From: Utricularia gibba
Lineage: Eukaryota; Streptophyta; Magnoliopsida; Lamiales; Lentibulariaceae
Reading direction: 5' to 3'
Assembly (NCBI GenBank): GCA_002189035.1
Contig: CM007990.1
Coordinates: 4,402,001-4,466,000 of the forward strand
DNA length: 64,000 nucleotides
The position numbers and the translations under genes were made by a program. Every line of letters starts with the position of its first letter. Within the stretch, counting starts at the first letter, position 1. Positions 18,801-53,542 of this stretch are shown here, piece after piece. The notes beneath the pieces are model-generated. The model saw only the letters and a program-made list of their open reading frames with translations. It searched no databases and had not been told where the DNA came from.

Positions 18801-20672
18801 TGGTACTGTGAAAGGTAAAAAGGAGTTGGCTTCAAAGATCATAGATCTTGATGAGATCACTGACCCAGTTGAACTGCATAAAAAAGCCAGTCTTGATGAA
18901 TACGAGGTGGAAAGTGATGGTGAGAATTCCGAGGCCTCAAGTGACGACTCATTACAGCCTTATGACTTGACAGATCATGGTGATGACCTGAAAAAAAAAT
19001 CTTTGAAGTTGGTTGATCTTGTCACAGCACTAAGAAAATCAGATGATTATGAAGCTGTAAGTTCATCACTACCTTGCTTCTGGTATGCAGCTGGTGTTGT
19101 ACATAGTTATTGTCTCTTTGTCTTATGACAAATACATGCAATAAAGCCTGAGGTTGATTGAGGGACGCCATCTTTTTTGTGTCGCTCATTGGTGCTTATC
19201 TTGTCTCATATAGAAATTTTGCTGGGCCACAAGGTCCATCATTGACCAATAAAATAGACATGCATCTTTGAACACTTCACATCATTGAGATTTGTCACTG
19301 ATAACAATGAACTTGATAAATATTTGATGCTGCCTCACTTTCAGGTTGAAGACGCCCTTGATGTTGCTGAGAAGCTTATAAGAGCATCACCAGATGAGCT
19401 GAGATATATAGCCAATGATCTGGTGAGAAGCCTTGTGTATGCTCGATGCTCTGAACTTGCTGCTGATGGAGAAGAAGAATCAGCAGAAGAAAAGCGGCAA
19501 AAGGCCCTGGTTGCACTGATTGTCACTTGCCCTCTCGAATCCTTGGATTGTCTTAATAAAGTCCTTTATTCGTCTACTCTGGACATCAGCCAGCGGATAC
19601 TGATCATAGATGTCATGACTAATGCAGCTCAGGAGCTTTCAAGTTTAAGAATCTTGACATCTGAGCAATGCCCAAAGCCCTTATATCATCATATTCCTCT
19701 GTAAATCCATGGTTCATCCCAAGTGACTCTGGCCCTGCTGGAGCAGGACAGTGGAAGGAAATTTCTTCAGGAAATTTGGTGAACTGGACTCACTCTTATG
19801 AAAGAGAACTTCCACTAAAAGCAAGTCATTCTACTACATCCAAGACCCTGCGGCAGAGCCTTGGATCAAAAACTTGGAGTAATTCTATGAAGTCTCGAAA
19901 CTGTTTTGTGGGATATGCTGCTGCATTTATGCTCCCAAGCATGCAAGGATTCGATAAAAAGAGACATGGAGTTGATTTACTTGGTCGAGATTTCATCGTC
20001 TTAGGAAAGCTCATCTACATGCTTGGTGTATGTATACAATGTGCAGCAATGCACCCTGAGGCTTGGGTTTTGGCATCACCGCTTCTTAATATGTTGCAAC
20101 GCAGGCATGATCCTTGTTTTTTGCTTTGTTACTGTTGACCGATATTCACTGTGCAACATGATGAATCCTTTTCTATTATTCCAGGGAGATATGTCGTCAT
20201 GCTGAAGCATGCGTCAGGAAGGCCGTCTTGTTTGCAGCTTCATCTATCTTATCAGCTCTTCATCCATCATATGTGGCTTCAGCGCTAGCTGAAGGGAACG
20301 TCGAAATTTCTCAAGGCCTAGCTTGGGTCCGTACATATGCTCTGCAGATAGCTGATTCAGATATTGACAGAGAATGCCACACGGTTAGGAACTAGTACTT
20401 TTAGACTCTTTTCCATGATTTGTCGCATTGCGAAACAGAACTCCGTCACGTAATTTGGCGAGTGTCATGGAACGGAACTTGTCCAAGTTTTCATGCTTGA
20501 ACTTGTCATGCAGCTAGCCATGGTGTGCCTCCAAGCACATTCCGAGATGGCTCTTCAGGCTTCTCGCAAGCTCCAATCCTCCTCCGAAGATGCATCCCTC
20601 ACCAAAACCATCACTCTGTCTCCAAGCATCAACTCCAACAGATCAATCAAGATCCCCCATTTAAATTCTTAG
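15872..20672 (+). CDS. TEL2: Telomere length regulation protein TEL2/TELO2 homologue (one apparent frameshift)
   Basis: TELO2 is the core of the TTT complex (TELO2-TTI1-TTI2), which helps Hsp90 fold PIKK kinases such as ATM, ATR and TOR. Twelve exons join in phase: 15872-16054, 16134-16236, 16419-16590, 16701-16880, 17240-17397, 17467-17743, 17975-18186, 18348-18446, 18530-19056, 19345-20104, 20185-20383 and 20514-20672, about 1,009 residues. It has the helical N-terminal repeats and an acidic linker (DEYEVESDGENSEASSDD). The plant TELO2 C-terminal domain is clear (EEESAEEKRQKALVALIVTC, PWFIPSDSGPAGAG, GFDKKRHGVDLLGRDF). In exon 10 the frame breaks at the CCC at 19671-19673: one base is missing, yet both sides are well conserved. 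Intron 10 appears to use a GC donor (CGCAG|GCATGA). Confidence 0.88.
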
Positions 20673-23360
20673 GTCATCATCCATCTCTCAGCTTCTTTTC
20701 TTGTTTCTTTTTTCTGCAGTCTGTCACGGAATTACCAAACATGGAAGATTCACTGTACCATGTGATGTTAAACTGCAGATATACAGTGACTTTCGGTTTC
20801 CCCATGATATGCCGACCATCTGAACAATCTTGTCACCATGTGGTGCTGGAGTCATGGAAACGACAACTCTTCATGATAGTATCTGGAGTTAATCACAAAC
20901 AAACACTGAAACTTAGGCTTTTCATAACTTAATGAAGGGCGTTGCACTCTTTTTTTGCCCTTTACATGTTCATAGTGTAGCGCAGTTGATGTTATCCCAT
21001 CCATACCTGTCCATGTTCAAGGTGTTGTTTTCTCTTGGTAATTCGGATTGGGTACAAAATTCCGATAATATGATGATGTTGTATGTGTTCTACTTACAGA
21101 AATGATATTGGTCATTCTATGCTGAGATCTTACTCATATTAAGAGGGAGATTGATCCTTTTCCATAGGCCAATTTCAAGCATGAAATAGAAACAGAAAGT
21201 CTTCAATTGAGAATCAAGTTAACACTTTTATAGAAACATAGGATTGTGCAGTAGTGAGACTACCTCATTATTTCAAATTACCATCAACTGTGATCAACCC
21301 CTCTCTGTGATTCAGGTGAATTTGGTGCCATGATGCAGAAGACAAGAATTCTCTGAAGATCGAAAATGCCAAGATGCCATCCATCATATGCAAGGGCGAG
21401 CCTGACAGGATTCAAGGAGCGCAAGCGATGCAAGCCAGGAAGAGAAGAGCTGAAGAAACAGCCTCCTCTTCTGAATCAAAGGTGCTTCTCTTGAACTTCG
21501 TAGCTCTGCTTTTGTTGCATTGAACAACCTGCTGTGGATATGGATGGCTTCCTTTCCTCGTTGCACCTTCCTTTTTCACCTCCTTCGGCGGTGCTTCTGC
21601 TCTGGAAACCATTCCTTTCACCAACGCAAACCCCACTGTATATTTGGCCTGGAAAACTGTGGCATGGATCCTGTTTTATAGGCCTCCAGCAGCCACTCAA
21701 CTCTGAAATGAATTTGGCTGCAGGGGCCACACGGTAAATTTGTTTCACCTAGGGGTAAAAAAAAATTGTTTTTTTTTTGTTCCACCCCATTCGACAAGCA
21801 TTGCACAAGAAAGCCATGGACATTACTCACCTGTCACATTTAGTAGTGCTTTTTGTTCCAAACCTCGATGTCGGGTGCATTTCATCTCGTTTAGTTCTAA
21901 AGAAGACACAAGACTAGAAAAGCGCCTGGTGTTTGTTTCTATACCTGGTGCTAGAACTTAACTTAGTTACCAGTATAATATTTTGTATATGATATCCATG
22001 TTTAACACTGTTGGATTCATAAGATTACAATTTTGTTCCCATGATTTCCAAAAGAATCAAATTAAAGGGATACTAGAGAATCTGAAACTAGGACACATCT
22101 AGAGAATGAGAAAATAAAAAAATATATCTTTTTTAAATATAGGTATAAAAAACTATTGGATTCATAAGACATTACTCCTGCATGTCTTGAGCCTCTCAAG
22201 ATACCAAGTCCATTTACTGCTGGAGGCATGCATAACTATAAAAGCTACTGGAGACTACTACATCATGGCATTCACATGTACATCATGATGCTCCTCTCAC
22301 CAAGCTAGCTTTTTTACTTGTGAAGGATAAAGTTGGATGGGGTGTTTTTCTTGTATTTTAAAATTAGAATTTATCAATCCAATCACTTGTGACATGTGTC
22401 GTGTTAACCAATGGATTGGGGGATGAGATATATTTAAATAGATGAATTCCATTAATTTTGTATGAGATTCTGTATACTGAAAAAAAAAAAAGTAAAACTA
22501 TACATATAAAATGTTTAAAATAAACAATATCATATAAAAAGAAACGTGGATCATAACATTTGGTATCGTAAGTAAACTTGAGTACATGCCAATGATGGGA
22601 CAATGAACATTCAATGAAAATGATGAAGGTTTAAGTAGGAGAAAATTTGAGATTCATGATTTGAACAATATTCAACATTAATTACGTACAAGAAAAAAGA
22701 TATGCTTAAATAGAAAAATTATTCTAATTTTGTACAAGAGACAAAAGATATATTTAAAGCGTATAATATCATATAAGGATAGACATGATTTATGATATCT
22801 AAACTTATTTTTACCTACATAAATATTTTAGAAATATTGTTTATTAAATTGCCGGTAGATGTCACGTTTAGATGATGTTACAAGTCCAAGGCGTAACCAT
22901 TTGTTGTTGTATCCCGATCAATTATGCAGCTCTTGCATCCCCTAAAAGAGAACAAGATGGTTGTATTGATGTATTACAGTTTGCTATTTTTGGAAACAAG
23001 GTTACATCATTTCCAGGTTTGAATTGTTGATGTGCTCTCCCCGTGCCACGTGGATTCAAGGTGCTTATTTTTTATTTTTTGGGAAAAAAAAATTACTTGA
23101 ATTTTGTTTCGTCACAGACGAGGATTGAACTCGGGTACTGCAGCATAATAGTGTTCGTGAACTCGTTTTCTTTGACGCTTTTACCCTGACGGTTCGGTTT
23201 CTGTTTGCGATTCCCATGGCGATTTCTCGGTCGTCGAAGCGATTCCGGTCAGCGTCTCCTCTCAATCTCGCGTGCGCTGTTCTATTGTTGTAGATAGATA
23301 GTTCAAAGTCCCGTCCTCGGGATCGCAAGGATTTAGCGGGCGTCAAACGTGGACTTACAG
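20673..23360. other. Intergenic region between TEL2 homologue and SCD2
   Basis: About 2.7 kb. The first part, to about 21,960, is composition-balanced and probably includes the TEL2 3' UTR. I could not assemble any conserved protein from its short frames. From about 22,000 to 22,870 it is AT-rich and carries repeat-like DNA. The last few hundred bases, 22,920-23,360, are probably the SCD2 promoter and leader. Confidence 0.45.
22395..22795. repeat. Diverged AT-rich dispersed repeat, related to 40.56-40.80 kb
   Basis: Two adjacent stretches (22,430-22,560 and 22,685-22,790) share a word order with 40,610-40,760: CTAATTTTGTA or TTAATTTTGTATGA, an A-rich link, then AATATCATATAA or AATATTATACAA, followed by an A/G-rich stretch and (in two copies) ACGTGG. 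The alignment is gapped and made by eye. This is probably an old non-autonomous transposon relic. Confidence 0.35.
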
Positions 23361-27962
<4,602 letters not shown>

Positions 27963-28574
27963 TTCATTCCTCCCTGCATCCGCTCCGGAGTGTCGCAGGC
28001 TCTATTCTCGTATACAGCAGGTCATATACTCTTCCCTTTCATTCGTTGTTGGGTTGAATCAGCAATCAGCTGCAGCAGCATGTATGCCATGTGTGTTTCC
28101 CCTTTCGTTTTTCTAAATGGTTCTTGTTGGACTGTATTTTATTTGTCTTGTCACGCCCACATGCTACTTTACAAATGTTATTTTACAGAATTCATGGTGA
28201 AAGTTAGAATTCAGGGGATTTTGGGCATGCATTTTTTAAATTCTCAAAAAATGGGAATATAAAATATATTTTTATTTTATAATTAAAATGAGAATGTGAA
28301 TATGTTACTTAAAAAAAGAATGTGAATGATCATTAAAATGAATTGATGTCTTGTAATTAAAAAAAAATTGTAAATGATATATATAAAATATATTTGATTT
28401 CAAATTTATTGAAACCTTAAAAATAGAAGCCTGAACTAACGAGGGGTTGAATGATTAACCCTGCAGGCGTGTCTGTCTATTAATGGATAATTATAATCGT
28501 CAGAAAATAACTTCCGTCATCTTCTTCTTCCTTCTGTTCCCGCGAGTGCAGCAATCGGCGCGAAGGGGGCGCCA
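27963..28574 (+). promoter_or_regulatory. SCD2 3' flank and PHS1 promoter region
   Basis: These 612 bases separate the SCD2 stop from the PHS1 start, both on the plus strand. The middle (about 28,250-28,420) is AT-rich. The last 75 bases are GC-richer and are probably the PHS1 leader. No specific element was identified. Confidence 0.4.
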
Positions 28575-31500
28575 ATGGCCGCTGATGAAGTGACCGAATA
28601 TGGGCCGCACTTTACTCTTCAAGTACATTTCTCCTCCTCTGTTTCTTTCCACGTCATTCCTGATCACGCGCGCACACATACTAAATTCTCCTGAAAAGCA
28701 ATATTTAACTGCTCAAGGAAGATTGTTGTTGGAGTTTGCTATGGTTCTAGATCTGGGATCTTCCTGTTGTCGTAATTTGTGTTTCTTTTTTTTTTTGAAA
28801 GGTGAAGTTTTTACTGGAAGGGATATCTGTTGCTCAACCGGTTTTTTCTTTTCTTTTGGGAAAAAATGTATATGCAGAAGGAGGATGACAGAGATTTTGA
28901 TCTCGAAAATGCTGAGGCAGATGCCCCATTGCCTCTCACTGTTACATCACGGGTACATCTCCTCATTGGATTTTGTGCATCTCTTCCTTAGATATCCTCT
29001 TAGCGTCACTTTAGATATGGAATTTGGTTATTTGAATGGAATGTACAGGTGTTGTATATGTTGGGGGACATTACTGCAGGCCCTGCTTTCCGATTTGCTC
29101 AGTGGCTTGAGTTGGTACGAAAGCGCAGCAGTAAATCGAGAGCCTCTGGATTCCCACACCGGCCTCAACACCCGGAGAATGTGCCCCTGAGGTTTGTCTA
29201 TTTGACGAACATGCTTGTATTTAAACTCAGAGTTGATATTTTCTTCTGTTGGGATGTAAAAGCCTCGAATGTGGTTACTACTGTAGTCTCATATATGTGA
29301 TGGATATTTCTTTTTATTGACATGATGTCATGATTTCTTTGGCAGTACAGAAGAACAAAATTTAGAAGTAGAAGCTTCACCATCTGAGCATGGTACAGAA
29401 ATTAGTTTGTGGGAAAGACTTGGAAAGGCCGAAATAGTCGACATTGAATCAAGCTCCTTTTCTTGGAGTGCGCTTTCCTCTCTTCACCATACAGAGCATA
29501 GCAGCAGCACTGATCAATCTGAAGATGATATGAGTAAACCTCTAGAGGTATGCAGGATCATTTTTTGCTTAGAGTGGTAGCTTTGCCTTTCTATTTTTAT
29601 TACATGGGGAGGTGGCATCTCTTGCTCTTGGTGTACATGCGTTTAAAATAATTTTCCTTAAATTTTGGCATTTGTCACATGTTTTATCTTTATGCTTGAA
29701 CAGGTCACAGTGAATTCAGGGGGTGTTGTCTTTTTTGCACTATTTAATCGAACAGAAAGTGATGGGTCCTCCAAGGAAGCGGCAGCTGTAATAAAGTTTT
29801 CATCTTCAAGGATAGCCACCCAATCGGAACGACTTGGCTATGAATTTGCAAAGTGGCTTGGTGTCCATACCCCTCAAGTTGTGCCCTCTTGCATCAGCTA
29901 CCACATCTGAGACTGCAAAGTTTGTATTCCTAAAACATCTGATGATGAAATTTTCAGGCTAGAGTCATTCACAATGCAAGTTCTGAGTGGTTGCAAATCA
30001 AGGAAGCTGCGGAAAAAGCAAGGGATGCTTTTGTGGCTGAACAGGATGAAATTGGTGAAATGACATGCTCTGAACTTCTGGAAGCTCTTGAGCTTAGCCG
30101 CTGCCTTCTGGTCATGAAGTAAGCATACAGCTAATGCTTCTTACCTAGTTGATTGCACTGTATTTTGTGCATTTATTTTTCAGTTCTAACACCTCTTTTA
30201 GTTGAGTGGAAGTCTATTGTACCTTCTCAGTTATGTGCATGGATCTCCCCTACTGGAAAGCTCAAATGCATTCGAGTCACGGGAAAATGCTGAAAGGGCA
30301 GCAGCAGCACTTGGGAGGATCTTGATGTTAGACCTTGTCATAAGAAATGAGGATCGCCTCCCTTGTCGCCAACTCCGGTGGCGCGGCAACTCTGCAAATT
30401 TAATCTTGACAGATAAGGCATCGACTGTAAATGTTGATCCTCTTGAGGTGGCTTTTGACTCTGCTATCCAGAGATATAGACCAAAAGTTATTCGAGCCCT
30501 TCAGAAGGAGAGAAGGGCAACTTCTATTGACTGTAGACTGGCTCCTACTCAGTCAGCATTACTTTCACAGAATTCTGATCTGTCTGACTTATCAGAATCT
30601 CCACTCTCTAGTAATCTGAGTGTAAAAAGTTTATCCTTGAGCGAGCAACTTGGTTCAGATTTGCGCTTTGTGGCAATAGATTCTGGTGTGCCCCGTAGAC
30701 CTCCAGCTGGTAAGCGCACAAATGACCAGGCGACTTATCCTAAACTAGTTGAGCTCCTAATCAACAGTCCAGACTATGCATCTGAGCTCTTGTTTGAGAT
30801 AACAGGTGGAAAACTTGGGACTTCAACAGAAAATGCTAATGCTAGAAGTGATTTCTCTGAGAAGGAGATGAGTTCTATTGTGCATGAATTCAGAAGCGGC
30901 TTTCGAGCAGCTCTTAGGGACTTGCAGGGATTTCATATCTTCCTGATTACACTTTACCAAAAGTTAGAATGTAATTTGCGAGCATTGCTTGGCATTATCA
31001 ACAGATGTTCTTCTGGGGATCTGGAAAAGGAGGAGCTATTTGTCACTGATTCTCCATTGCCACCAAGAGGAACATACATGCATTGCCCATCATCACCTAC
31101 CAGGGATCTCGTTGGTGATAACATCTCTGATGTAAATGACTCAGAAACACACAGAACAGCTACAAGGGCATCAAGAGAAAGTTCAGATAATTACTCCCCA
31201 TTGACACGTGAAAATTGGCATGGGAAGTTCAACAAAGGCAGTGGTGAGCATATACGTAGCTTGAGGTTGACTACCAAGCTACGGGACTTCCACAAATACG
31301 CAAAGGTTTGCAAGGAATTAGTGGCTTGAGTTATGCTTCCTGTCAAGTGTCAACAACAGTTTGTTTACATAAGAATTTTCCATTAAGATGCACATATTTG
31401 TGGTTCTTCCTGAATCTTACTGTAAAGTGATTGGCTGGTAGCATCTATATCTCTGTTGTTGAACTCTGCTTTCTCTCAGGTTGATGCAGAAGTCCAAAGG

Positions 31501-34318: not shown

Positions 34319-37300
34319 TCAGGGAGTGGAAGAGGAAGTTGCAGGCATGTTCTTGGCTTCTTTGGGATCGACACCTTCTCCAACTGAAGAGTTGTCTTCC
34401 CCTTTGAATTGAAGCTCCCGAGATTCATGCGTTGGACCTCCTCCTTTGTGAGGATCAGGATCTTCCGAACCATGCGAACGAATTCTCTGTTTGTGGGCAA
34501 GGAGATTAGTATGGAAATCGGGGATGAAGCAAGAGAGCAGCAGATGATGTCTTACTCCCAGGGGTCATCTCCGACGAGCATCATATCATCCTCATCGTCG
34601 GTATACACAACCAGCCAATTCTTGCTTCGAACCTTGAGTTCGCCATTGAACTCGAACAGATTATCCAGTTCGGCTATCAATTCTTGGTAGCCGCAAAATT
34701 TCGTGAGATCCACAGATCGACCAAGGGCAGTTCCCTGCTTCAAGACCTGGAATAAGAACAGTTTCATGGACTATAAGATGATGAGAACCACTGATGCTGG
34801 ATGATTCAATGCCATAACATGTATAACCTTGGTGCAGCTCCTTGTTGAACTGCAAATGCCTCTGCCTTCTCTTTCTGCAGCTCCGGACACGGGGTGGGAG
34901 CTCGTGATTGACGAAGTAACAGCTGCTTTCGCTCCTTTTGATTGATCATATTCCAATATTGGGGCTTGATTCGCAAGGATTTCATGACGCAGGGAACTTG
35001 ACGGCTCAACCACACTAGTTTTGGGAAATGAAACTGGCTCCAGTGGAGCTGAGTCCCTGGTGAAAGATATGCCAAAAATCTTGCAGATCCCGTCTTTGGG
35101 CTTGCCGAAGTCCTGAGGTTGCCCCGGAATCATCTCTCGGGATTCAACTGGCGGCACATGAAGGAATGCTGGAGAAATCAACCAGTTTGGTTGCTCACAA
35201 CGACGATTCGGAAATGAGGAGAAATCTCTGAAAGCACCATATCTTTCATCATGCTGCGCTTGATATGAAGAATCAGCAGAATGATCTTGAGTTGTCATAC
35301 AAGACTCCATCAGATTCAATGAGAGCCTAGGAGATATTGTAGGCCAAAGATTCCCGCCTGCTAAGCTGTGTTTCCTCTCAACCTCTTGATGATATCGGCT
35401 TGAAGCAGTTACATTACTTGTTGGCCTGGAGTGCTCTCGGGATGCACTGTTCATCTGTGTTCCACCACCCGACAGCATATCAACGAATGATGACTCTGTT
35501 TGCCCCAGAGCTGACCTCTTATCTGAATGGTATATTCTTGAAACAGAAATGGCATCCTTCTCATCCATTGAGGAATTCCATAGTTGTGGCTTATTGGATG
35601 ACTCCGATTCATGACTCTCTCCCAAGGCTGCTCTCAAGGTCGATGTTTCTTGACCTTGAAAGACCCTTGGAAGCCCATTGGCAGGTGAAGGGTCTACTGC
35701 TATCTTCGTGTGGCCTGAGTTACAACATAAACAACTCGTCAGTTAAGAAAAGTAGAAGAGGCTTTGGGAAGAGAATGGCCTGGATCAGTGCAGTGATGAA
35801 ATTGTGGCTGAAACTTCATGAATACCATTTCGAAATCACTTGTGAATTGTGCATGGAACAAGGGCAGGATTAAGCTAAAAGAATCGACATAAAGAAATAA
35901 CAACCTTCTCGAGCAAGAACCGAAGGATCAGGCGATGAGGGATCCATGCACGAACGAGGTCTCTTCTGTCTAGAAACTGGAGGCAGATTAAGAGCAGGGG
36001 CGAGGGCAGGTTCTATTTTCCATGGTGAAACTCTATCTGGCCGAGGAATTGTTGAATTTTCGTCCCACCGTACCTGAGAAGAGTCAACCGATTTCCAGAG
36101 CATGAAAACCACAAAAGAGCTTATCAGAAATCATGGCTTCCATTTAAACCAGAGGTAATACCTTCAGGCATCTCCATTTCGAATCTGGCCATTTCTTTGG
36201 GTCTGCATCTTCAATGCCAACAACAGTTCCAGTGAACCTGGAGGGAAATAAGTCGTTAAAAATTTCACAGAGTAGTCTTCAGAAAGGTCCTGTGATGCAT
36301 TCATTATACCTTTGTTCAGGAGACTCATCACCTTCAAATCTCATCTTGAATCGCATTCCGATGGTATAATTGTTCTTGATGGACTCCATATATTGATGGT
36401 AAGGGACAATAAACTCAGCAGGGCTTGTCCTGTGAACAAATACAGCAAAGCCGCGCCCCATCACACAAACTGCCAGATTAAGCTTGCATTATGACCAGAA
36501 GAGCAAAAGCCACATACCTAGGCTTGTAAAATACGGTGAACATGCTCTTGGTCTGAATGGCATGCCAAGCTGTTGCAAGAACACCAAGTTGCATGCTGTG
36601 GCTGGATATGACCGGCGAAGGAGAATTTCCCTGTTGTCTCATCGCACGCCTGACACCAACCCGGAGCTCTCCATTCTCCCCTCTGTAAATCAGCTCTCAT
36701 TATTGAAAACTCACCAGAGGGAGACTCATTGACAAGCAAGGTTGAGATTTAACCTCAAGAATATGAAGGCATCCCCTGCAACAAGCCTCTTGGAGCTAAC
36801 AAAGACACTCCAGCCACTTTGGAGGAGATGCCGCCGTGGTTGACCTGTAAGTAATTTACAGGGTCATTAACAACCAGACTCTCTGAAAATAGAGGTTCTA
36901 ATTTCTTCCTTAGGTTTCATATTATCACTTCACATAAGGTACTTTTGAGCAATGAAATCTGTGACCACATCCACAGAATACAAAATTTTCTGCTTGAGCA
37001 TGGCATTCTACTCCTTAGCAGAGAAAACACATACGGTTCAGTGAAAATTTTCATGCAAAATCTTCAGAAGAAGACACTCTGCCTCTTGAAACAGAAACAC
37101 CGTAAGACTTTAGTTTTTACCACGAAATATGTGTCTGAATCTCCACTCATTCCCCAGGAGATCTCTGGCAACTAGTTCTTGAGTTGGGGCTGCTTCGACA
37201 TATCCTATATTGAAGGAAACAGTAAGAAAAGGAAAAAAAAGACACCCCAGAAACTTGCAGGTGCAGAAACTCATTCAAACCAGTGGAGGTAGGCATTCAT

Positions 37301-38164
37301 CAGCATGTCGTCTCAGCACTGAAAACCCACCATGTGTGCTTGTATCTGATGCTGTAAGAGTCTTGCAGAAGGAATGAACGTGGAACCGGGGAGGCGCCAC
37401 CACTGGATTAGAGTCCTTCTGCACTGCAGTCTCGTCTTGCTGTTAAACCACAGACACCATGAGAATCATCCAGATAAGAGAAGGTGAACAGTGACTGATA
37501 TGAATAGCTCACATTAGGTTCAGGCATCAGTGTAATTTGAGCAAAAACCTCATCCGTATCAGGCTCAGCCTACAACAAATCCAGAGAAAACCATCAAGAG
37601 AACTGCAAAACCCAGTGTCTGATGTTCAACCAGACAGCACTGCACCTTCAGACTAACGTTGACCACACGACAAAGGATCTTGGGGGGAGATTATACACAG
37701 GCATCTGCTGGTCTCCACTTTGATTGGTAGATGCCTCCACCTGTTGGACGAGAATCCCAACAGAAAATGAGGGAGAGACAGGGAGAAACCCTAGTTGCAG
37801 AACCGGGGCTAATCGAAAAGGAAAAGGCGTAGTTACTGAGTTCTGATCCTCAGAATTCAGGAACGCGACGCAGAACAAAGAGAGCACCTGCTCTATGTGG
37901 CCTTGAGGAAAATAGAAAGCAAGTTCGTTTTCGCGGGGAACAGAGACCAAGGGACCAGCGCAAGCCTTCCACAGCTCCGTGTACAACGCCGTTTCAGCAT
38001 CATCTGAAGAAGAACAACGCTTAATTACACCCGAAAAGCACTGACCCACAACATCATTAACCACGAAAATTACCCTTCCCGGCGGCGGAGCTCCCCTTCC
38101 CCGGCGAAGAGTTACAGACTCTGTTATCACTGTAACCCCTGATCGACACCTCCGATGCAGCCAT
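34319..38164 (-). CDS. ARF2: Auxin response factor, ARF2 type (three apparent single-base deletions)
   Basis: Nuclear transcription factor that binds auxin response elements; ARF2 relatives are repressors. Fourteen exons: 38164-38074, 38003-37888, 37740-37646, 37569-37513, 37439-37281, 37204-37121, 36844-36754, 36682-36518, 36429-36310, 36237-36162, 36073-35905, 35696-34828, 34746-34556 and 34486-34319. If frameshifts are ignored this is about 817 residues. The B3 region ([40 protein letters not shown]), the ARF domain ([20 protein letters not shown]), the ARF2-like [14 protein letters not shown] and the PB1 domain ([32 protein letters not shown]) are all clear. Frame breaks occur in the GGGGGG at 37682-37687, the GGGG at 37186-37189 and the CCCC at 34399-34402 (plus-strand bases). 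Each needs one extra base to restore the conserved frame. Confidence 0.88.
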
Positions 38165-39984: not shown

Positions 39985-40002
39985 ATAATAATAATAATAA
40001 TA
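39985..40002. repeat. (AAT)n microsatellite
   Basis: A short run of about six AAT units in intergenic DNA. Confidence 0.8.
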
Positions 40003-41450: not shown

Positions 41451-44400
41451 GAAAAATCAAAATTCAATAAACATAATCTCCATCCATATTAAAAAAAAAA
41501 ATCAAATTTGTGTGGGGATGGATCCTGGCCGTTGAAAGGAAGGGGCAGGCACGTGGCGGAGATGTTTTGTTACCACAAAACCGCGACAGATTTCCGTGGA
41601 TTTCGTCAAAGTGGCACCACAACAACAATCAAGTTTCGCATCCACAGGCAGCTCGCTCATGCACATGCTCCCTCCACAAGTACACACATTTACTCCACCC
41701 CCATTCCACGCCAAACGCCCCACGCCAAAATACCAACAATACTATATGATTCTATTTGGTATATAGATAAATTATATCTGGAATAAAAAAGATTATATAA
41801 AAAAGGAGCATATAACAATATAATTTTATTCAAACACTTCTATTTTTATTGTTTTATTTCATATTCATGATATAAATTATTTGAAATATAATTTATCTCA
41901 TCTACCAAACATCATGTTTTACTTTTCTCATTTAATTATACTCTTTTATAATTTCGACTAAATACACTCTATCGTCTCCAATACATACACGTCCTCTCTC
42001 CCACCCATTCCTTCATGTTGCATTAATTTGAAGGGCTCATTTGATATGATATGTAATACTTTGATTAATATTTATGTTTATGTAAAATTAATTTTATTAA
42101 TATTAAATAAATTAAACATATGCGGTTAACCATAGATGGTAAGAGCAGATGTGATGGATGTGGATCCTAAAGGGTGTGTCTGAGACTGAGGGGAATAGTG
42201 AGGGCACGCGTGAAGGGGGACTGCCGCACGTGCGCCACAGAAAAAGGGACGCCATCCTGTGCGCATGGGGTCGACGTCCCTTCTTGTTGGTCCAGCACCC
42301 CACGTTCCACTACACTACTATTCCACCATATTTACACTTTCCTCCCTCCCACTTTCTTATATTTACATTCAGGGTACAAATGCAACTTGGATGAATAAGA
42401 ATATGTGATTTAGAGTGTGTTTTATAATATAATATATTAATTTTATATTTAAGTTTACACATAAAGTTTTATTTGATTAATTATAATATGTATATTAATT
42501 TTGTATGTTTGTGTTATTCACATACTTATTTTTTTAAAATATGAGTGATATATAAAAATGTAGAGGGAGAGTGTAGCTTAATTATATCTAAATCACTCAT
42601 ATATTCAGATTTTTATTTTCGGATATCAAATATTATAATTATGCTTAATTGTAATATATTTAAATATATTAATACTTTCATATCAAGCTAACTATTATGT
42701 AAATTCATGTGCCTAACAACTCAATCATACAAAGATTTTACATTTAGTTTTTAATAACATTAAAAATAGTGTGAGTTTTTCCTCTCCAACCAAACTTGGC
42801 CTTCAAGTTTAATTACTAGGTAAATTGTGGGGGTAAAACCACGTGTGAAAAGAAGTAGGTCAAGATTTACCGGCCACAGTAAAAAGTATCCGATTAATGG
42901 AGTTTAATATATAATTAAAATGAGTAATTATTTAGAATAAGATGGAGTTCCTAATTTTCCAAATACTAGCGGTGGTAGTATCCAACGTCTAGATTTTCTT
43001 ATCCATCTCTCGACCAATCAGGACAACCGGTGTTTCTTTTCTTTTCTTTTTTTTACTTTTTTATTTTCCGGTGTCCGGACTCCACTCGCTTCATTAAATC
43101 CGATTTTTTTTATTTTTTTAATGTCCTTTCGGAATAATAGTACCCCCCGGTGGACCAATGGCAACGCAAAACCTGTAAAGCTGCCCGGTCGTGTTATGGA
43201 GACGTGGCGCTGTTTCATTGGTCCAGACTCCCGGTCTATAATATAATATCTTTTTTCCCTCAGTACCATGATTCAGATTCTTCTGTTTCCCTTTTTTTAA
43301 ATAAATAATTAAATGCGTTGTTGGCAGTGAAACAAGTTCCAACTGCAAGTTTCTCTATTTGCCGTACATCCCTCAGCAATAATTTCTTCGAATAGTTATT
43401 TTCTACAGAAATTCAAATAAAATAATTTAAAAATTCGTTCAAAAAGGGAATAAAAAGATGCACGAGATGCATTATTTGGGGGTGTTTTTTCGTAAATGGA
43501 AAAAAAAGTTAAGTTGAATTGTGTACAGTAGAAGGCGAGACATGGATGGTTTGTTTGTCTCCACGATCGCTCCCAAGGTAAAAAAAAAGATTATTTTTTT
43601 AGTATAAATATCACAAATTATTGAAATTTCTAAATAGGGGACACCTTCTTGCAATGACAAGACACTACATGAGCAGAGAGAAGAGAAATTATTACAATAA
43701 AAACTATATTTTATTGATTTTATTTTTAAATCAATAAAATTTATTTTATTTATCCTTCGATGGTCGTGGCAAGATTCCATTTTGTATGTATCAATATATA
43801 AAATAATGACGTTTCTTATTTAAAAAATAAAATTTTTCATTATCATATAAAAGAAAATTCATAAAAATGAACGTGTAATTAAATTTCAAGTTAATTTTAA
43901 AAAACTCTTAATGAAATAAAATAAAATAAAATAACTAAATCTTCTTTCTGGGCTAGCTAGTTTTGCGAGTTGAAGCCCAGCCCAAGAAAGGGCCCAGCAT
44001 GCGAGACCGTACCAAACTGATTCAATCCTCATGTGCAAGAAGAATAAAGTTACCAATGAAATGAATAAATAATTACAAAAGAAAAAGAAGCTACGATGGA
44101 TCATTCAGAAACTCCAAAACAGCGGATAAATTATAAATGTGAGAAAATCGAGTATTCATAATATAAATTTTTTAGCTTAATGTAGAAAAAAGTCCATTTT
44201 TGTAAATGACCCCAAAAACCGTTGCAGAATTGAAAAATGGATTTTACAGGAGGGTGGGTGGAAGTTGGTCGGAGGAGCGGGGCGATTCCTGTGGTGGTGG
44301 ATGAGCCCGAGGCTTCGAGTTTACGGCAGCAAGCGAATATTCGATCTGGATATGGCTAGACTCGTACTGTCACATGGCGACCGACCGTGCATTCGACTAG

Positions 44401-44564
44401 TAAAAGACCCACAGCGCAGAGCTGAGCCAGAGAGAGTCCAAATCACGCCATCGGTGGGTCTGGCTTGATCTCCCGACTCCCGATCTCTTGGGTGTCTCCG
44501 CCCAGCTCCCCTCAAGAATCCCTCGGTTCTTCAACTTTTTCTGGGCCAGTTTTTGGGGTCTCCT

Positions 44565-45550
44565 ATGGTGGGAATTGGAGAAGAACTCAAATCCAATGGG
44601 TTCTCTGCGGCCGCAGGAGCACCCCCTCGTGTGTTCAGGAAGTTTAGGATAAGTAAGATCAGGTTTCTATTCTCTGGGTCTTTGTTCGTTGGTTTTTGCT
44701 TGTTCCAATTAGTGATCATTTGGGCCGTTTTTGCTTGTTCTGAAATGTGATTGATTGCTCGCTGCTTCGCAAAAGCAGGGTTGTTCAAAAAATAAGACGA
44801 ATCTTATCTTTTCTTCCTTGAAACTTCAACAGGTTGATGAATCTTACTCGTAACCAGGAGTTCAATTAAGCTAATTCTCAAATCTGGTTACTGGATCTTT
44901 TATCTGAGGTTTTGTGTTCCTCATGGTTATTTTCCATGGTAGGAACCACGCAACAGGGTAATGGAGGGGTGAAGTCCATTGAGAAGGAGCAATCAGCAGC
45001 AGTAGAAGAAGAAGAAGGAGGCCCTGCAAAGGATATGCAACTGGACTCAGACACCCTTCCCATCTTATCAGAGAAGCGCAAGGCGCTATTTGAACCCTTG
45101 GAGCCTGTGGCTAACATTATCAAACGCCCTTCTGCAGAATCCCTCTCCCGCCACCTGATTTCGACTCCGCTAGCTACCCGAAAGGTTGGCTGATTGGAAA
45201 GAAGCGAAAGCTCGTCAATGTCGATGTTGTTGAGAGCATGAGGAGGATTGCCATTCAAGAAATGAACAGAAAGGTTTCAAATTTACATTCACTTTGCTGT
45301 CTCAGAGCAGCAATGGTGTTATTCAGAGAGTTCTTACTTGCAGGACAGAGAAATTGATGGGCTAAACGAGCAGCTCGAAGAAGATGCTCGTTGTCTCGAG
45401 CACCTGCAACTCCAACTGCTGGAAGAAAGGAGCAAGCGATCTGAAGCAGAGAGACAGAATGCTATGCTACAGAGCCAGATAGCGGTGCTCATGGAAATGC
45501 TACAAGAGGATGAAGCTGTGGAAGATGAAGGAAATGATCATGGGATGTAA
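44565..45550 (+). CDS. HDR1: Protein HEADING DATE REPRESSOR 1-like (one apparent frameshift)
   Basis: Resembles the plant nuclear protein HDR1, which in rice delays flowering with the kinase OsK4. Three exons: 44565-44652, 44943-45273 and 45344-45550, about 208 residues. The start gives [16 protein letters not shown] and PPRVF, the usual beginning. The core has [23 protein letters not shown], then [18 protein letters not shown] and [20 protein letters not shown]-terminal coiled coil follows ([20 protein letters not shown]). Exon 2 is one base short: reading SAESL onward, the C-rich tract at 45,141-45,149 shifts out of the conserved LPPPDFD frame, which then continues to the end. This probably reflects a lost C. 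The family name comes from memory and the function is inferred from rice. Confidence 0.8.
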
Positions 45551-45920
45551 GATTCCACTCCCTACTCCATCGTTCAAATCTTTATATATTTCTTATTCTT
45601 TTCTGGATGTAGATAGTACACAAATGTTTGGAGGTATTGGTTCAAGCTGTAATGTCAAGAAAGCATATCCTGCATATGCTGCTTGTGAGTGTCAGTTTCA
45701 TGGTTCATAAGATAGATAAGTCGCAAGGGTGACTCGGGTGTTCTTGATGTACATACCTGTTATATTCATATGTGTGACAGTTTATTCAAAATTTGGCATC
45801 TTTCACTTCATGTGGAGACTATGAGAGAGCAAACACTTCATCTCAAAAACACACAGTTTTGAAGTTAATAAAATGGACGAAAGGTGATGATGCAACAAAC
45901 CAAGTATACAGGCATCAAAG
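45551..45920. other. Tail-to-tail spacer
   Basis: These 370 bases lie between the HDR1-like stop (+) and the stop of the small membrane protein gene (-). They should hold both 3' ends. No coding signal was found. Confidence 0.5.
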
Positions 45921-46232
45921 CTAGAAAAGCTTTAATTTTCCCATGGCCATGGAAGCTTTGGCATGCTGCAGTTGGCAGGATACCTTCTGAGCACCACCCA
46001 AACCAGAACATGAATTTGTTGATCCAAGAGTCACGGCGAAGTACAAATAAATAGTGCACAGGCACGCAAGAATGGCAAGAGCTGTTAGAAGAAAAGAGTG
46101 TCTCCTGAGTAGTGTTGCGCAGTCTCCGAATTCGTCGGCTCGAGAAAATGGCCTCTTGAGCGACGCTGTAGAAAATGCAGTCTGCGATTGAGATCTCCGG
46201 TGGGGCGAAGTTATCACGCTGTCAAGAGTCAT
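45921..46232 (-). CDS. Small single-pass membrane protein of unknown function (conserved in plants)
   Basis: A 103-residue protein in one coding exon. The start is the ATG at 46232 (MTLDSVITSPHRRSQSQ); sequence upstream in the same frame lies in a leader intron. One strong hydrophobic segment spans about residues 46-67 (LLTALAILACLCTIYLYFAV), preceded by basic residues (LLRRH), so the N-terminus may face the cytosol. The C-terminal part has CSGL and a second Cys (VSCQLQHAKAS), and the last residues are basic. I recognise the sequence type as a conserved uncharacterised plant protein but cannot assign a function. A leader intron at about 46,241-46,607 ends TTTTTCAG eight bases before the ATG. 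It shares its upstream region with the STE20-type kinase gene. Confidence 0.8.
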   Translation of the reverse strand: MTLDSVITSPHRRSQSQTAFSTASLKRPFSRADEFGDCATLLRRHSFLLTALAILACLCTIYLYFAVTLGSTNSCSGLGGAQKVSCQLQHAKASMAMGKLKLF

Positions 46233-47474
46233 GGTCTTGTCTGAAAAATGAACACCAAATGAGTCCAAAAAAACACCAAAACGTCACAGTTTGCAAATCA
46301 AAAGGAACGCAATCCCCAGACGGGATCAGACCCAAAAGCATGACCTAGTTCATGAGCTCGCTAAAATCATGTTGTTTCTGAGAAAAAAGGAGGTGTCACA
46401 CCCACAACTCAACAATACCCAATCACGTAATCAACATGCCAGCTTCAATTTCGAAAACCTAATCGGCACCAGCTTCAAAAAATAGAAAACCATATTCCAA
46501 CCAGCTTCATCCAAAACAGCACCACCAACACAGCATAAATCTGAATTCAGATCACCAAACAAATCTGGGCAAACAGGGAAACACACGCCCAGAAATCAAA
46601 CGCTCACCTACGAAAACGCGGCTCCGAATCCAATGGATTCCCTTGAACTGCAATTGACGAAGAAAGAAATGGGAACATTGCCCACGAACCAAAAGGCTGC
46701 CCTTGAAATATAAGGCATTGATTCCACAAGGCACCGCACGAGGCGTTGAAGAACGCGGACAAAATACGTCATATTTTAAAACAAATATTAAAAAATAAAT
46801 TGTTTTTAATCGAATCTACGGTTCGATGCATCGCACGTTTCAATATTAAATAAATGCAAATATTAATTAATATTCATATTATTAAGAAATCCATTATATT
46901 ATAATATCTAGAAGATGATCTGAGGCCAAAAAGATGGCCAACGGCGGGATCTTGTAGACACAAATCCAGAAAGAAAAGCTCGTTCAGTTCTACTCTCAAC
47001 GGGGATCCGCTTATGCCGGCCGCGCTCTCTCTCTGCATCGACATTTGCTCTCATTTTGTTGATTCTGTTGCAGATTTCTCTAGGATCATCTACGTGAATT
47101 TAACTGGGGTTGATTTGATACAAGGTTGTTTGTATCTCTAATTTCGTGGATGTGTTTAATGCTTTGAAGTATTGTCGATGTAAGCTGGTTTCTCGTGGTT
47201 CTTCTTCGAGCCTATTGGCGTAGTGCATTTACGCATGGCGTTGAAATCACGTGCATGTGGATTGAACTGGATGGAATAAAGTCGACGTGGGTGTGCTTTT
47301 GTTTTTCTAGACTATGAGTATTGATTTGGATGGGGTTTGAGTAACTGTGACTGGAGCTGTAACGCGTGGTTCTTGGCGTTGAGCGATAGTACTTGTTTAT
47401 ATGTATTGAGATCTGAGATCAGATGGACGGTTTGTTGCAGGTGTGATATATTGATGTCTTGAGGCTTGGATTCA
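46233..47474. promoter_or_regulatory. Divergent upstream region of membrane protein (-) and STE20-type kinase (+)
   Basis: Contains the 5' leader of the minus-strand gene, with a leader intron (GTGAGC donor at 46,607, TTTTTCAG acceptor at 46,241). An AT-rich core follows at about 46,770-46,910, and then the kinase leader. From 46,980 on, a CT-rich stretch (GCTCTCTCTCTGC) precedes the probable kinase start site. A leader intron for the kinase is possible, given the TTGTTGCAG at about 47,432-47,440. Confidence 0.45.
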
Positions 47475-50400
47475 ATGGAGGAGAGGAAGAAGTACCCGAT
47501 TGGCCCGGAGCACTATACTACGTTCGAGGAGGTGGGAATGGAGGCAGTGCTTCAGTTTATCGCGCACAATGCAACTCGCTCAATGAGATTGTGGCGATCA
47601 AGATTCTCGATTTCGAACGGCATAATTGTGATGTGGTAGGGTTATCTTTCGGTTCAATTCGAGTTTTCTTTTTGTAGTGCTATCTGACTGTTTGATTTGA
47701 GCGTGAAGGTAGCTTTCCTACTTCTCTTGTTATGGAAGGACCATGAATGCTAACTGTTTTGTGCACTAGTGTGCTTCCACTGTGGTTTCTGCTATTTCAG
47801 GATTCATATTTTTTTTCTGCTGTAATGTAAATCCGATGAGTGTGTTGTTACAGCATTTGCTTTTTATCATTGTTTGTGTAGCTCAACACACTCTCTATTG
47901 TATATTGATGGGAAGAAAAATCAAAAAACCTGATTCAGTTATGACATGTTGCATCTAGAATAATGTCTCACGGGAAGCTCAGACAATGGTCCTTGTTGAC
48001 CACCCAAATATTCTAAAATCGCACTGCTCATTCGTCAGTGACCACAATTTGTGGGTTGTGATGCCCTACATGGCTGGAGGCTCTTGCTCACATATTTTAA
48101 AGGCTGCACACCCTGATGGTTTTGAGGAGGTTGTCATTGCTACAATCTTGCGTGAGGCGTTAAAGGGCTTGGATTATCTTCATCAGCATGGCCATATTCA
48201 CCGTGATGTCAAGGTAAGTAGTCAGAATTTCGAACAATTGGAGAGTGTTTTCCTTGCCTTAAGACTTACTGTCTCTTTCCACATGTTTCAGTTTCATTTA
48301 AAACTCACACGTCTTCATACTAAATACTTTGTGCCTAAATTTTCCTGTCTACTCATCTTCTCAATTCTCGCTAACTTTCAGGCTGGAAATATCTTAATTG
48401 ATTCTCGCGGTGGAATCAAGCTGGGCGATTTTGGTGTTTCTGCCTACTTGTTTGATTCGGGTGACAGGCAGCGTATTAGAAATACATTTGTAGGCACGCC
48501 CTGCTGGTATGGAAAGAGGCCTTTCTTTTTCTCTTTTTGTTAGTGAACAGATCTCAACATTGCTGGAGATATTGCTTAACCTGTCACTTCTTCAGTTTTG
48601 GTGATCCTACGTGATACTTTCATCTTCTCTGTAGGATGGCACCGGAGGTCATGGAGCAACTGCATGGCTATGACTTCAAGTATTTTCTTCATTTTATGGA
48701 TATTTCTGATCTAGCTCTGGCCATCACCTCCTCGTTTTCCTATTTTGAGGATTTTCATTTCGTTTCAGAGCTGATATTTGGTCCTTTGGCATAACTGCTT
48801 TGGAACTTGCTCATGGTCATGCTCCTTTCTCAAAGTATCCTCCAATGAAGGTGTTAAACAATAGTTTTAAGACTCCTTTTCTTTAACAAGCCTTTTTAGA
48901 ATAGAGCCATGATCTTTACGATTTGAATTTTGCCGTAGGTGTTGCTCATGACATTGCAAAACGCACCACCAGGTTTGGATTATGAAAGAGACCAGAAGTT
49001 TTCGAAGGTATCCTTTTCAAAACCGTACATAGCTATTGACTAAAATTTGATTTACATGGCATTAATTTGTTTGTTTGTGTCATCCAGTCATTCAGACATA
49101 TGATCGCTAGTTGTTTGGTGAAGGATCCTTCTAAAAGGCCTTCAGCAAAAAAGTTGTTAAAACATTCTTTCTTCAAGCAAGCTCGGTCAAATGATTATAT
49201 CGCTAGAACGCTTCTCAAAGGGCTGCCACCACTTGGGGATCTTCTTCAGGAATTGAAGGTCTGTGCTTTCATGAAGATTGATCCGTATTTGGTGCCTGGA
49301 TATGGATATCCTGTATTTTGTCTCTATGCTAATAATTGATTTTAATTGATGATAGAGGAGGGAGGAAGATATGGTTGCTCAAAAGAAAATGCCAGATGGA
49401 GAAAAGGAGGAGATATCTCAGGTATCATCTGAACCACAGCATAACAGCCATGCTGATTTTACTCATGCACGTTGACTAATTTCACAAGGTGGGGATAGTT
49501 GATCCAAATGTTCCAAACATCCCAAAAGAGATGTGAACGCTGATCTGCATCTTTGCAAGCATGCTTAACCTTTCTCTTCATTCAGCATTCCAGTTTTCCA
49601 GATGGCATCTCACTTTTTCCTCAGTTTCCCTTCCTACAAATTTCATCAGCCGTATCTAGTCATGAGGCTTTCCCTAGCTTTCACCCTGTTGTGATTGGGA
49701 GTGAAACTTGAAGAATGTTTTCGTATGCTATTCTCATCAATATGGGTTCTGTGCAGTATGGATGAATAGTTCTTTCAGTTGGATGCTTTTTCAGCTGATG
49801 AAAGATACCTACGATCCTCCTAGGGAATAAGCTATAATGTTTATGAATTGTTCGCAGAATGAATATAAACGTGGTATCAGTGGTTGGCACTTCAACCTTG
49901 ATGACATGAAGGCCCAAGCTTCCCTAGTATGTGCTGTCCTTTCAGTTATATCATCTCGTAAATATGAGTCTGACTGTTTATTTTCTTTCTGCTTGATTTT
50001 AGATTCAGGATGATGATCTTACTAGTGAGAAAGATGAAGGTATTCAAACCAAACAAGCTGAACTCGGGACATCTTCATCCAGACATAATGAAAATTTCCA
50101 ACACCAGTTATCTTTTGCAAGCCGAAATTCTGATAATGCAGATTCTGTAAGTTGATATTAATTCTGCTTTGAAGGTAAGAAAAAATTTATACTTGCTTAG
50201 ACACCATGGCTCTTTGCACTTTGCAGGACGAAAATGGTCCTTCTGTCGCATCGGCGGACTCTCTGTTTATTGTGTACAGCTTATGTCTTTTCTTTTGTTA
50301 TCGGCTTCTTTATTTTGTGCCACCCTAATTGTGTTCATTTGTGGTTCAATTTTTCAAAAACAACAGCAATTTCAGTTGTGTAATTTTCAGTGATTCTTGC

Positions 50401-52240
50401 CTTATTGAACTATGAAATCCTTTTGGTGCTTGCGTGTGATTTTTTTCTACATGTTGATTGAGCTTTCTTCTACGCATAGACCTAGATGTTCGAGGGGTGA
50501 TGATAATGCTGGCCTTCCTGACGCAATTCCAGAACATGCGATTTTGTCTCCTGTTAACGAGAATCGGGTAGACATTGTGAGGAAAAAACCACAGGAATTA
50601 ACCGTAATGTCTTCTAACCAAAGGTGTGGCTTTCTATCTTGGCTACTGTAGCCCATCACAGATTTTGTTTGGTTGGTGCTCAATTGGTTCTTGCACTTCA
50701 TATCCTGGCTTGACAGATATTATCAAGTTTATAGTTAGTGCTCAACAGTAACCTAATATATTTGTATCTACTAGCAAATACAACGACAGGGGCAATCCAG
50801 GAATGGAGAACAGCAAATCTCAAAATCAATCAGAAATTTTTTCCGGTGCAGGTCTTGCCAATCCCCAGTCCCCAGATATTGTACAGCCCGAAGTAGTACA
50901 GTCCAAAAGCACAAAATCATCAGGCAATGAATATGTTGCAGTGAATTTTGGTAGTGCAGCGCATTTTGGTGCCATTTTTATCCTTATTAAACCCCTTTAT
51001 TTTGTTGCAGTTAATGGTGATGATGGTGAGGATAAAAATAAGAGTCCAGCTGTTCAGCGGAGAGGCCGATTCAAGGTTACATCAGAGAGCGTTGACATGG
51101 TAAATTATCGTTCTGACTTTTAGGGATTATTTTCAGCTTGCCTTTTCTTGATGGATGAGCTCTATTTTTGACAAGGTCGATCCGGCTTTGATATTAAGAA
51201 GCAGTACTTTGCAATTGTCTGAAAATCTTGTTTCGAAGGTAAATGTAACATTTTTCTTTTTACTTTCTTTTGAGCTCAGCAATACGGGAATCCTAAAACA
51301 TGAATACATTGCCTTTTGTTAGTTATTACATGCTTCTTTAACATAAAAAATTGTCCAAAGCGCCATGAATGTTCTGTTTTTCAAGTGGCTTATTTGATAC
51401 CAAATTTCAATTATCGCTCCTTGTGACAAGTCATTTGGACCACAAGATATGTTTATGATATGTTGATCCATGATTTTGAATATTATTATTCTGGCTCAGG
51501 TGATTGCGCAGCTTCCTGCTAGTGTTGCCCCCTTGTCTGAGGATGCTACTTCATCCGATAATTCTGGACTGGGGTCTTTCCTCAATCTGCAGCTTATGCT
51601 GTATGCAAATATAATTCAACGGGTAATGCTGTTCACCTTTTCCTATTGCTAACTCACTGGATTCCGAGGTGCTAACACTGGCTTGACAGGATTTTCTTAT
51701 TGCTCTGATGAAGCAGACGTCATCTAATGATCCCTCTGGTATCAATACGGATGCAAGGCTTTTTATCCTTTTCATATCTTTGTTCTCGTTGTCAATCACT
51801 CTGTTGTTACAATTTTATACAGACTGGACTCATGCTAGCATGGAAAGAGTAGAGAAAACACTGGTATGGTTCCCTTTGTGCCATTTCTCCGCTCTATTTA
51901 TTTCTGTCGTTTGCAAGCGAAATTGTGCCTGCTGTATTTAAACTCTCAAACCCAAACCATAAGGATTTGTGAAGTTGTTCCAACCTTCTCATGTTTTAGC
52001 ATCAATTTTTTTTCCTCTTTGAAGTTGGAAGCTGCCAATGAGAGGGAAAAGGACCTGCTACGGGAGGTCTCAGATTTGCAGTTAAGGTCTGAACATAACG
52101 TGAACCGATATTAGCAATAGTTTCTAGAGTGGAGTTAGGTTACTCATACTTGATCCAGAAATATGCTCCCCTGCAGGCTCATATGTGCTCAAGAAGAGAT
52201 CAAAAAGTACAAAACCGACAATGGCCGGGCAAACTCTTGA
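47475..52240 (+). CDS. STE20/SPS1-type Ser/Thr kinase (BLUS1/FRAY2-like)
   Basis: GCK-class kinase related to plant BLUS1 and OSR1/SPAK-like kinases. About 20 exons. The kinase-domain exons join in phase: 47475-47635, 47959-48213, 48382-48506, 48635-48679, 48769-48850, 48939-49007 and 49088-49258. All motifs are present: VAIKIL (Lys), [48 protein letters not shown] and [18 protein letters not shown]. Then come [50 protein letters not shown] and a final coiled coil [17 protein letters not shown] ending at 52177-52240. The frame breaks at the GGG at 47534-47536, inside the glycine loop ([14 protein letters not shown] needs one more G). Exons between 50,227 and 51,011 are uncertain: the donor near 50,240-50,275 is unclear and a further missing G at the GGGG near 50,496 is possible. 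Confidence 0.85.
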
Positions 52241-52543
52241 TCCTTGGAACATATGTTCACCTATTTGGCTAGCTTTTGGTGGTACCTTACCCCATTACGG
52301 TTCCTTCTACTTCAGCCCTGTGCAGCTAGCGCCAACCATAAGAAAAGCATGGCATCACACTGCACTGTACAGTAATTATGCACTCATTTGGAGGACTTGC
52401 GTGAAGAAAAGCTGCCGGGGTTTCATTTTGTTGCTGTCTCTTACCTAGAAATAAGAATTGTTCTGGTTTTCCAAGGAACAAACGGGATGGATGATAATGA
52501 TAAGAAATTCAAGCTTCCTGGAGCAAGCAAAAGAAGAAATAAC
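52241..52543. other. Tail-to-tail spacer
   Basis: These 303 bases lie between the kinase stop (+) and the conserved-frame stop of the ABC ATPase gene (-). They should hold both 3' UTRs. No gene is visible. Confidence 0.5.
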
Positions 52544-53542
52544 TCAAGAGCTGAGCTGAAGAAACGTCTGCGCCATGGATGTTTGGCCAGCGAGAGGAGC
52601 TGCGGCGGCAGGATCTCGACAATCTCGCCGTTGACGAGAAGGCAAACGACGTCCGCGATTCTCTGTATCTGTTTGATGCTGTGTGAAACCATTACGATCG
52701 TCATCCCCTGCTCCTTCTTCAGCTTCACCAGCACATCCTCCACATTCTGCGTCGACAGCGGATCCAGGGCGCTGGTGGGCTCATCCAGCAGCAAAACCTG
52801 CAAGACATGGCGGAGCTCAAATCCTCAGTGATGCCCACAGAAAGGAGGAGGACATGTCTGTTTTCCCTTCTCACCTCTGGTTCATTAGCCAGAGTTCTTG
52901 CAAGTGCAACTCTCTGAGCTTGCCCCACTGAAACACTCTCTTTCCCATAGAAGGATGAGTCCAGATCCGCCAACGCCAGCAGCTTATATACCTCTTCATC
53001 ACTCAGCTTCTTCCCTGTCAAACGAGGGCCGTACCTGACGTTCTCAGCCACCGTCCCTGCAACACAACAAACGGAAACAGTGAGGCCAGCCATAGTCTCT
53101 GGGTCACACACACACCAGCGCTACTCACCTGGAAACAGGGCCGGAAGCTGGAAAAGCATTCCGACCTTGCGGCGGAGGCCGAGGACATCGACGGTGGAGA
53201 TGTCGACACCGTCCAGGAAAACGGAGCCCGGAGCAGGCTCCCAGAGGCGGTTAAGTGCCCGGAGGAAGGTTGACTTGCCGCTTCCACTAGGGCCGATGAC
53301 TCCCATTATCACGCCTCTGGGAATATCCACATTGATTCTGTTCAAAATCAGGGAACCCTCAATCGACACCTTGCTCAGATCCCTGACCTCCATCTTCGGC
53401 ACCGCCGGTACCAACAATGCCTCCCGCGCCTCGCCTTCCATCCAGACCAGAGAAGGAGACACAAACAACATAAGAAGAAGGCCGTTTTTTTCAGCACACG
53501 TGTTCAGACATCATTATCATGCGTACCTGGGAAATCGGCCAT
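52544..53542 (-). CDS. ABCI17: ABC transporter I family ATPase, ABCI17/STAR1 type (frameshift near the C-terminus)
   Basis: Stand-alone nucleotide-binding subunit related to Arabidopsis ABCI17 and rice STAR1. STAR1 pairs with the membrane protein STAR2 in aluminium tolerance, probably by exporting UDP-glucose. Four exons: 53542-53527, 53434-53129, 53056-52875 and 52797-52544, about 252 residues. The first exon is only 16 bases (MADFP). Walker A is GPSGSGKST, the Q-loop FQLPALFPG, the signature [13 protein letters not shown], Walker [13 protein letters not shown] and the switch His [12 protein letters not shown]. These are intact and in order. After LLSLAKHP the frame breaks at the GG at 52,577-52,578 (plus strand). 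One more base there gives the family C-terminus [10 protein letters not shown] and a stop at 52,544. Read literally, it runs on into unrelated residues to about 52,441. Confidence 0.9.

What the first reader, a model, noticed from the sequence alone, without database searches (positions are those of the whole stretch)
19671..52578. Seven single-base deletions, all in C/G runs or C-rich tracts, in five conserved genes
Each break needs exactly one added base to restore a long conserved frame. Sites: TEL2 (19671-19673), ARF2 three times (37682-37687, 37186-37189, 34399-34402), HDR1-like (45141-45149), STE20-type kinase (47534-47536) and ABCI17 (52577-52578). Exon lengths computed from splice sites independently come out one base short in each affected exon. 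Same sign, same base class and intact splice sites point to consensus errors in C/G runs. Seven chance deletions in five unlinked families, most of them probably essential, would be surprising. Other genes in the window (PHS1, SCD2, TADA1, GLOX) show no break.
Basis: partly seen in the sequence, partly recalled or inferred. Interest (0 to 1): 0.7.

Follow-up and report, generated by a model that had tools for sequence, protein, structure and literature searches.

The report
Assembly errors mimic broken plant genes
Seven places in this bladderwort DNA where a gene seems to be missing one letter are almost certainly mistakes in the long-read genome assembly rather than broken genes, and the same kind of mistake turns up across the whole assembly, so gene-loss claims based on it need checking.

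Summary
All seven frame breaks exist and each is one base short. The window lies in a 100 Mb, 516-contig genome that matches the PacBio-only (HGAP/Quiver) Utricularia gibba assembly. Paralogous copies in the same genome are intact at the five sites where a copy exists (ARF2 x3, STE20-type kinase, ABCI17). dN/dS of the affected genes is 0.06-0.10, against 0.49 for a real ABCI17-like pseudogene. The same defect occurs genome-wide: an ARF2 paralogue and GRAS, Exo70 and KCS genes give 20 more resolved breaks. All 27 resolved breaks are losses of one base; the lost base is certainly C or G in 13, and none requires A or T. Decisively, one GRAS locus was assembled in three contigs that show no base substitution over about 890 bases and differ only by missing bases: one lacks a G and is frame-broken, another is intact. 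Two corrections: at TEL2, ARF2 site 1 and HDR1-like the missing base could be A or T, and "conserved" was not shown for HDR1-like. Reads were not available, so direct proof at the seven sites is missing. Known kind of artefact; no new biology.

The parts
18531..20386 (+). TEL2 (TELO2-like) 3' exons spanning the break
   Evidence: Telomere_reg-2 Pfam on the upstream piece, E=1.1e-18; joined protein aligns colinearly to human TELO2 (7f4u), E=4.4e-25; single copy in the genome
19671..19680 (+). TEL2 frame break, one base short in CCCAAAGCCC
34319..38164 (-). ARF2-type auxin response factor, 14 exons
   Evidence: GT-AG exons; AtARF1 4ldv E=4.2e-159, colinear over sites 1 and 2; ARF_AD, B3 and AUX_IAA
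37682..37687 (-). ARF2 break 1, one base short at CCCCCC|AA
   Evidence: both paralogues intact here
37186..37189 (-). ARF2 break 2, one C short at CCCC
   Evidence: both paralogues read QPPTQ
34399..34402 (-). ARF2 break 3, one G short at GGGG (coding strand)
   Evidence: both paralogues intact here
44944..45550 (+). HDR1-like coiled-coil gene, two exons
45141..45149 (+). HDR1-like break, one base short in CCCTCTCCC
47476..52240 (+). STE20-type kinase gene
   Evidence: Pkinase E=1.7e-62; homoeolog on C451 with dN/dS 0.058
47534..47536 (+). STE20-type kinase break, one G short at GGG
   Evidence: homoeolog reads GGGG; only 1-nt exonic gap in the alignment
52540..53440 (-). ABCI17-type ABC ATPase
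   Evidence: ABC_tran E=1.4e-30; paralogue on C321
52577..52578 (-). ABCI17 break, one C short at CC (coding strand)
   Evidence: paralogue and even the C402 pseudogene read CCC here

Best explanation
The seven breaks are base-level consensus errors of a PacBio-only, Quiver-polished assembly of Utricularia gibba. In short C or G runs, and sometimes at CC or GG pairs, the consensus called one base too few. The genes themselves are intact in the plant. Shown here: the breaks, their sign, their recurrence across the genome, intact copies at five sites, purifying selection, and contig-specific losses at one triply assembled locus. Inferred: that the seven sites follow the same cause, and that the polisher's weakness at C/G runs is the reason.
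For: (1) Two ARF2 paralogues, a STE20 homoeolog and an ABCI17 paralogue are intact at the broken sites. (2) dN/dS is 0.089 and 0.097 (ARF2), 0.058 (STE20), 0.078 (ABCI17), against 0.49 for a true pseudogene pair. (3) The same lesion lies elsewhere: the C1 ARF2 paralogue at CCCC, 13 breaks in 11 GRAS genes plus C416, two in one Exo70 gene, three in KCS genes. All 27 resolved breaks are -1; 13 are certainly C/G. In 44 kb of coding sequence only 38% of runs of 3 or more are C/G, so 13/13 has a chance near 4e-6. (4) Contigs C416, C422 and C414 hold the same GRAS locus with no true substitution and differ only by losses; C416 lacks one G that both others have and loses its frame, while C422 is intact. 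(5) The literature describes this genome as PacBio-only, HGAP plus Quiver, 88x (PMC5793159), and the azuki bean assembly had the same fault, Sanger-confirmed at 91 of 91 sites (PMC4663752).
Against: No raw, short or RNA reads could be examined. The missing base is ambiguous at TEL2, ARF2 site 1 and HDR1-like. Most Exo70 genes and most GRAS genes are intact, so the defect is not everywhere. Three divergent loci (KCS C244:2620k, GRAS C3:261k, GRAS C244:2105k) carry steps compatible with either a gain or two losses and were not resolved.
Confidence: 0.96

Rival explanations
1. Real pseudogenisation: the window copies lost function after genome duplication in a lineage known for gene loss.
For: U. 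gibba has duplicated and lost many genes; ARF2, the STE20-type kinase and ABCI17 have intact copies elsewhere.
Against: TEL2 and HDR1-like are single copy. No in-frame stops other than those caused by the shifts, and canonical splice sites. dN/dS 0.06-0.10 against 0.49 in the real pseudogene on C402, whose steps are +1 rather than -1. Natural indels would occur in both directions and in the more numerous A/T runs.
Confidence: 0.02
2. Allelic or somatic variants: one haplotype carries the shorter run and was chosen for the assembly.
For: Contigs holding the same locus differ.
Against: Those contigs differ by losses only, with no substitution in about 890 bases, which heterozygous alleles would not do so consistently. 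The pattern is one-directional across unrelated genes.
Confidence: 0.015
3. Programmed ribosomal frameshifting or RNA editing restores the frame.
For: Five GRAS genes break at the same PGGPP motif.
Against: Paralogues are intact at the same codons; the motif simply encodes C/G runs; no shared slippery site among the seven; one gene breaks three times.
Confidence: 0.005

Closest known systems
Homopolymer indel errors of PacBio-only, Quiver-polished assemblies (azuki bean, PMC4663752)
   Same: Single-base indels concentrated in homopolymers, thousands per genome, breaking reading frames; the azuki authors estimate more than 1,000 genes would be broken.
   Different: Here the resolved cases are all losses and mostly in C/G runs; azuki bean had both signs, and the main text does not give the base class or say clearly which sequence carried the deletion.
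ABCI17-like pseudogene on C402:2068.5-2069.1k of the same genome
   Same: Frame breaks in an ABCI17-type coding sequence.
   Different: It has in-frame stops, many amino-acid changes and relaxed dN/dS, which the window gene lacks.

Membership tests
Long-read consensus (homopolymer indel) error | Single-base indels at homopolymers, with the rest of the frame intact | tested here: met
   a few of the 27 breaks are at short runs only (CC in ABCI17, CAG|CG in GRAS C244, GG in C416)
Long-read consensus (homopolymer indel) error | Consistent sign | tested here: met
   27 of 27 resolved breaks are -1; three divergent loci unresolved
Long-read consensus (homopolymer indel) error | Found in unrelated genes across the assembly | tested here: met
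   GRAS, Exo70, KCS and ARF2 genes on many contigs
Long-read consensus (homopolymer indel) error | Differs between independent contigs of one locus without substitutions | tested here: met
   C416/C422/C414, a GRAS locus, not one of the seven sites
Long-read consensus (homopolymer indel) error | Absent from accurate reads or Sanger sequence | not testable with these tools
   no reads or second assembly held
Pseudogene | Relaxed selection | tested here: not met
   dN/dS 0.058-0.097 for ARF2, STE20 and ABCI17; TEL2 and HDR1-like could not be tested, no paralogue
Pseudogene | Additional lesions (in-frame stops, damaged splice sites, frame-breaking indels of mixed size) | tested here: not met
Programmed frameshifting | Conserved shift site in relatives | tested here: not met
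   paralogues read straight through

The most novel reading that the evidence does not exclude
At least one of the seven breaks (most likely in the triply broken ARF2, which has two paralogues intact at those sites) is real and the gene is being lost in this plant.
Probability: 0.03. Interest if true: 0.4.

Novelty: not a real feature. Interest (0 to 1): 0.2.

Why it matters
The assembly appears to be the reference for a plant used to study genome shrinkage and gene loss. In the coding sequence surveyed there is roughly one lost base per 4 to 5 kb (about 26 per 115-120 kb, a rough figure), so many gene models will be truncated or split, and absence or pseudogene calls from it need short-read or transcript support. 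The kind of error is already known, so the value is practical rather than conceptual.

Tried and rejected
Looked for a second assembly or reads of the species: none held. The genome paper (10.1073/pnas.1702072114) is not in the library, so I could not read whether a short-read polishing step was applied. Searched TEL2 and HDR1-like for paralogues as controls: single copy. Considered C4:1155450-1155610 (GRAS) as a break: it is a true intron with GT-AG. Suspected that the published truncated DCL3 might be such an error: that paper confirmed it with transcripts and 5' RACE (PMC8333044), and the genome does show an RNase III pair on C213 with no Dicer dimerisation domain near it, so I drop that idea. 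I first read the C414 GRAS break as a single loss; coordinates showed a net +1 step, and the redundant contigs then showed several separate losses near the contig end. Whether the window is richer in errors than elsewhere (7 in about 14 kb against about 0.18 per kb) is not claimed, since the window was chosen for them.

Full report
What the window is. The window is G000:C2:4402001-4466000 of a 100.09 Mb, 516-contig genome. A 6,822,880-base contig (C451) matches the 6.8 Mb 'Unitig_8' of the Utricularia gibba PacBio assembly (PMC8333044); total size and contig number fit what I recall of that assembly. A review lists it as PacBio, 88x, HGAP, a pipeline it describes as using PacBio reads only with Quiver polishing (PMC5793159). 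The species is therefore very likely but not proven by a named record.

The observation. All seven frame breaks are present, and each needs one extra base (sign of TEL2 also by coordinates). ARF2 can be laid out as 14 GT-AG exons totalling 2469 nt; three more bases give 824 codons including the stop. The joined proteins are normal: ARF2 aligns to the Arabidopsis ARF1 crystal structure across the first two sites at E=4.2e-159, TEL2 aligns to human TELO2 across its site at E=4.4e-25, and the kinase and ABC protein match Pkinase (1.7e-62) and ABC_tran (1.4e-30). HDR1-like has no Pfam match and no paralogue, so 'conserved' was not shown for it. The missing base is proven C/G at four sites (ARF2 2 and 3, STE20, ABCI17). 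At TEL2 it could be C, G or A, at ARF2 site 1 C or A, and at HDR1-like C or T. So 'all in C/G runs' is likely rather than proven.

Intact copies. Two ARF2 paralogues (C1 and C321) are in frame at all three ARF2 sites; a STE20 homoeolog on C451 reads GTGGGGAAT where the window reads GTGGGAAT; an ABCI17 paralogue on C321 reads CATCCCATGG where the window reads CATCCATGG. In the STE20 alignment the other clear exonic gaps are multiples of three.

Selection. dN/dS is 0.089 and 0.097 for ARF2, 0.058 for STE20 and 0.078 for ABCI17 (Nei-Gojobori by script, on locally conserved codons only; synonymous sites are near saturation for ARF2 and ABCI17, so those values are rough). A real pseudogene related to ABCI17, on C402, gives 0.49 against its closest intact relative and carries in-frame stops. 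dN/dS alone would not exclude a very recent break.

Genome-wide test. I surveyed mostly intronless families, where a frame break shows as two abutting matches in different frames. GRAS: 13 breaks in 11 genes read at the sequence level, five of the genes at the PGGPP motif whose codons form C/G runs, plus one on C416. Exo70: one gene of about 17 broken twice. KCS: three. With the window's seven and the C1 ARF2 copy this makes 27 resolved breaks, all one base short, none one base long. Thirteen can only be C or G losses and none requires A or T, although only 38% of runs of three or more in 44 kb of coding sequence are C/G. Unresolved: KCS C244:2620k, GRAS C3:261k and GRAS C244:2105k, where a step could be a gain or two losses.

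The decisive case. A GRAS locus is present in three contigs. Aligned, C416 (900 bases), C422 (901) and C414 (893) show no true substitution; they differ only by missing bases. C416 lacks a G of a GG pair that both others have, and its frame breaks there. C422 has one open frame through the match. C414, near its contig end, lacks a C of CCC, a stretch of five bases, a T and another C. Allelic variants would also bring substitutions; independent consensus errors would not.

Mechanism. PacBio single-pass reads carry random indels, and the consensus step decides run lengths; residual errors concentrate in homopolymers. In azuki bean a Quiver-polished assembly conflicted with short reads at 8,611 insertions and 38,889 deletions, mostly homopolymer sites, all 91 Sanger-tested sites favoured the short reads, and more than 1,000 genes would have been broken (PMC4663752). 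That C/G runs are the worst affected here is shown by the counts; why they are is inferred.

Verdict. The breaks are assembly artefacts of a known kind. What is missing is read-level proof at the seven positions.

Noticed in passing
G000 C1:2798500-2805000 (L046), end of exon 5: An ARF2 paralogue outside the window has its own one-base loss at a C run (CTGCCCCTCTG|GT).
   Followed up: yes
G000 C416:1-900, C422:17771-18671, C414:3444157-3445049 (L099-L101): One GRAS locus assembled three times; contigs differ only by missing bases. The assembly therefore holds redundant contigs that could serve as an internal error check.
   Followed up: yes
G000 C402:2068500-2069110 (L050): A real ABCI17-like pseudogene with in-frame stops and relaxed selection.
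   Followed up: partly
GRAS PGGPP motif on C244, C375, C142, C2 and C1 (L081-L084, L086): The same conserved motif is hit in five genes because it encodes C/G runs, so systematic errors can look like a shared family feature.
   Followed up: yes
G000 C213:2761967-2762970: RNase III pair with no Dicer dimerisation domain nearby, consistent with the published truncated DCL3; not explained by consensus errors.
   Followed up: partly
G000 C413:4947k-4997k: Cluster of KCS genes on one contig, some partial or frame-broken.
   Followed up: no
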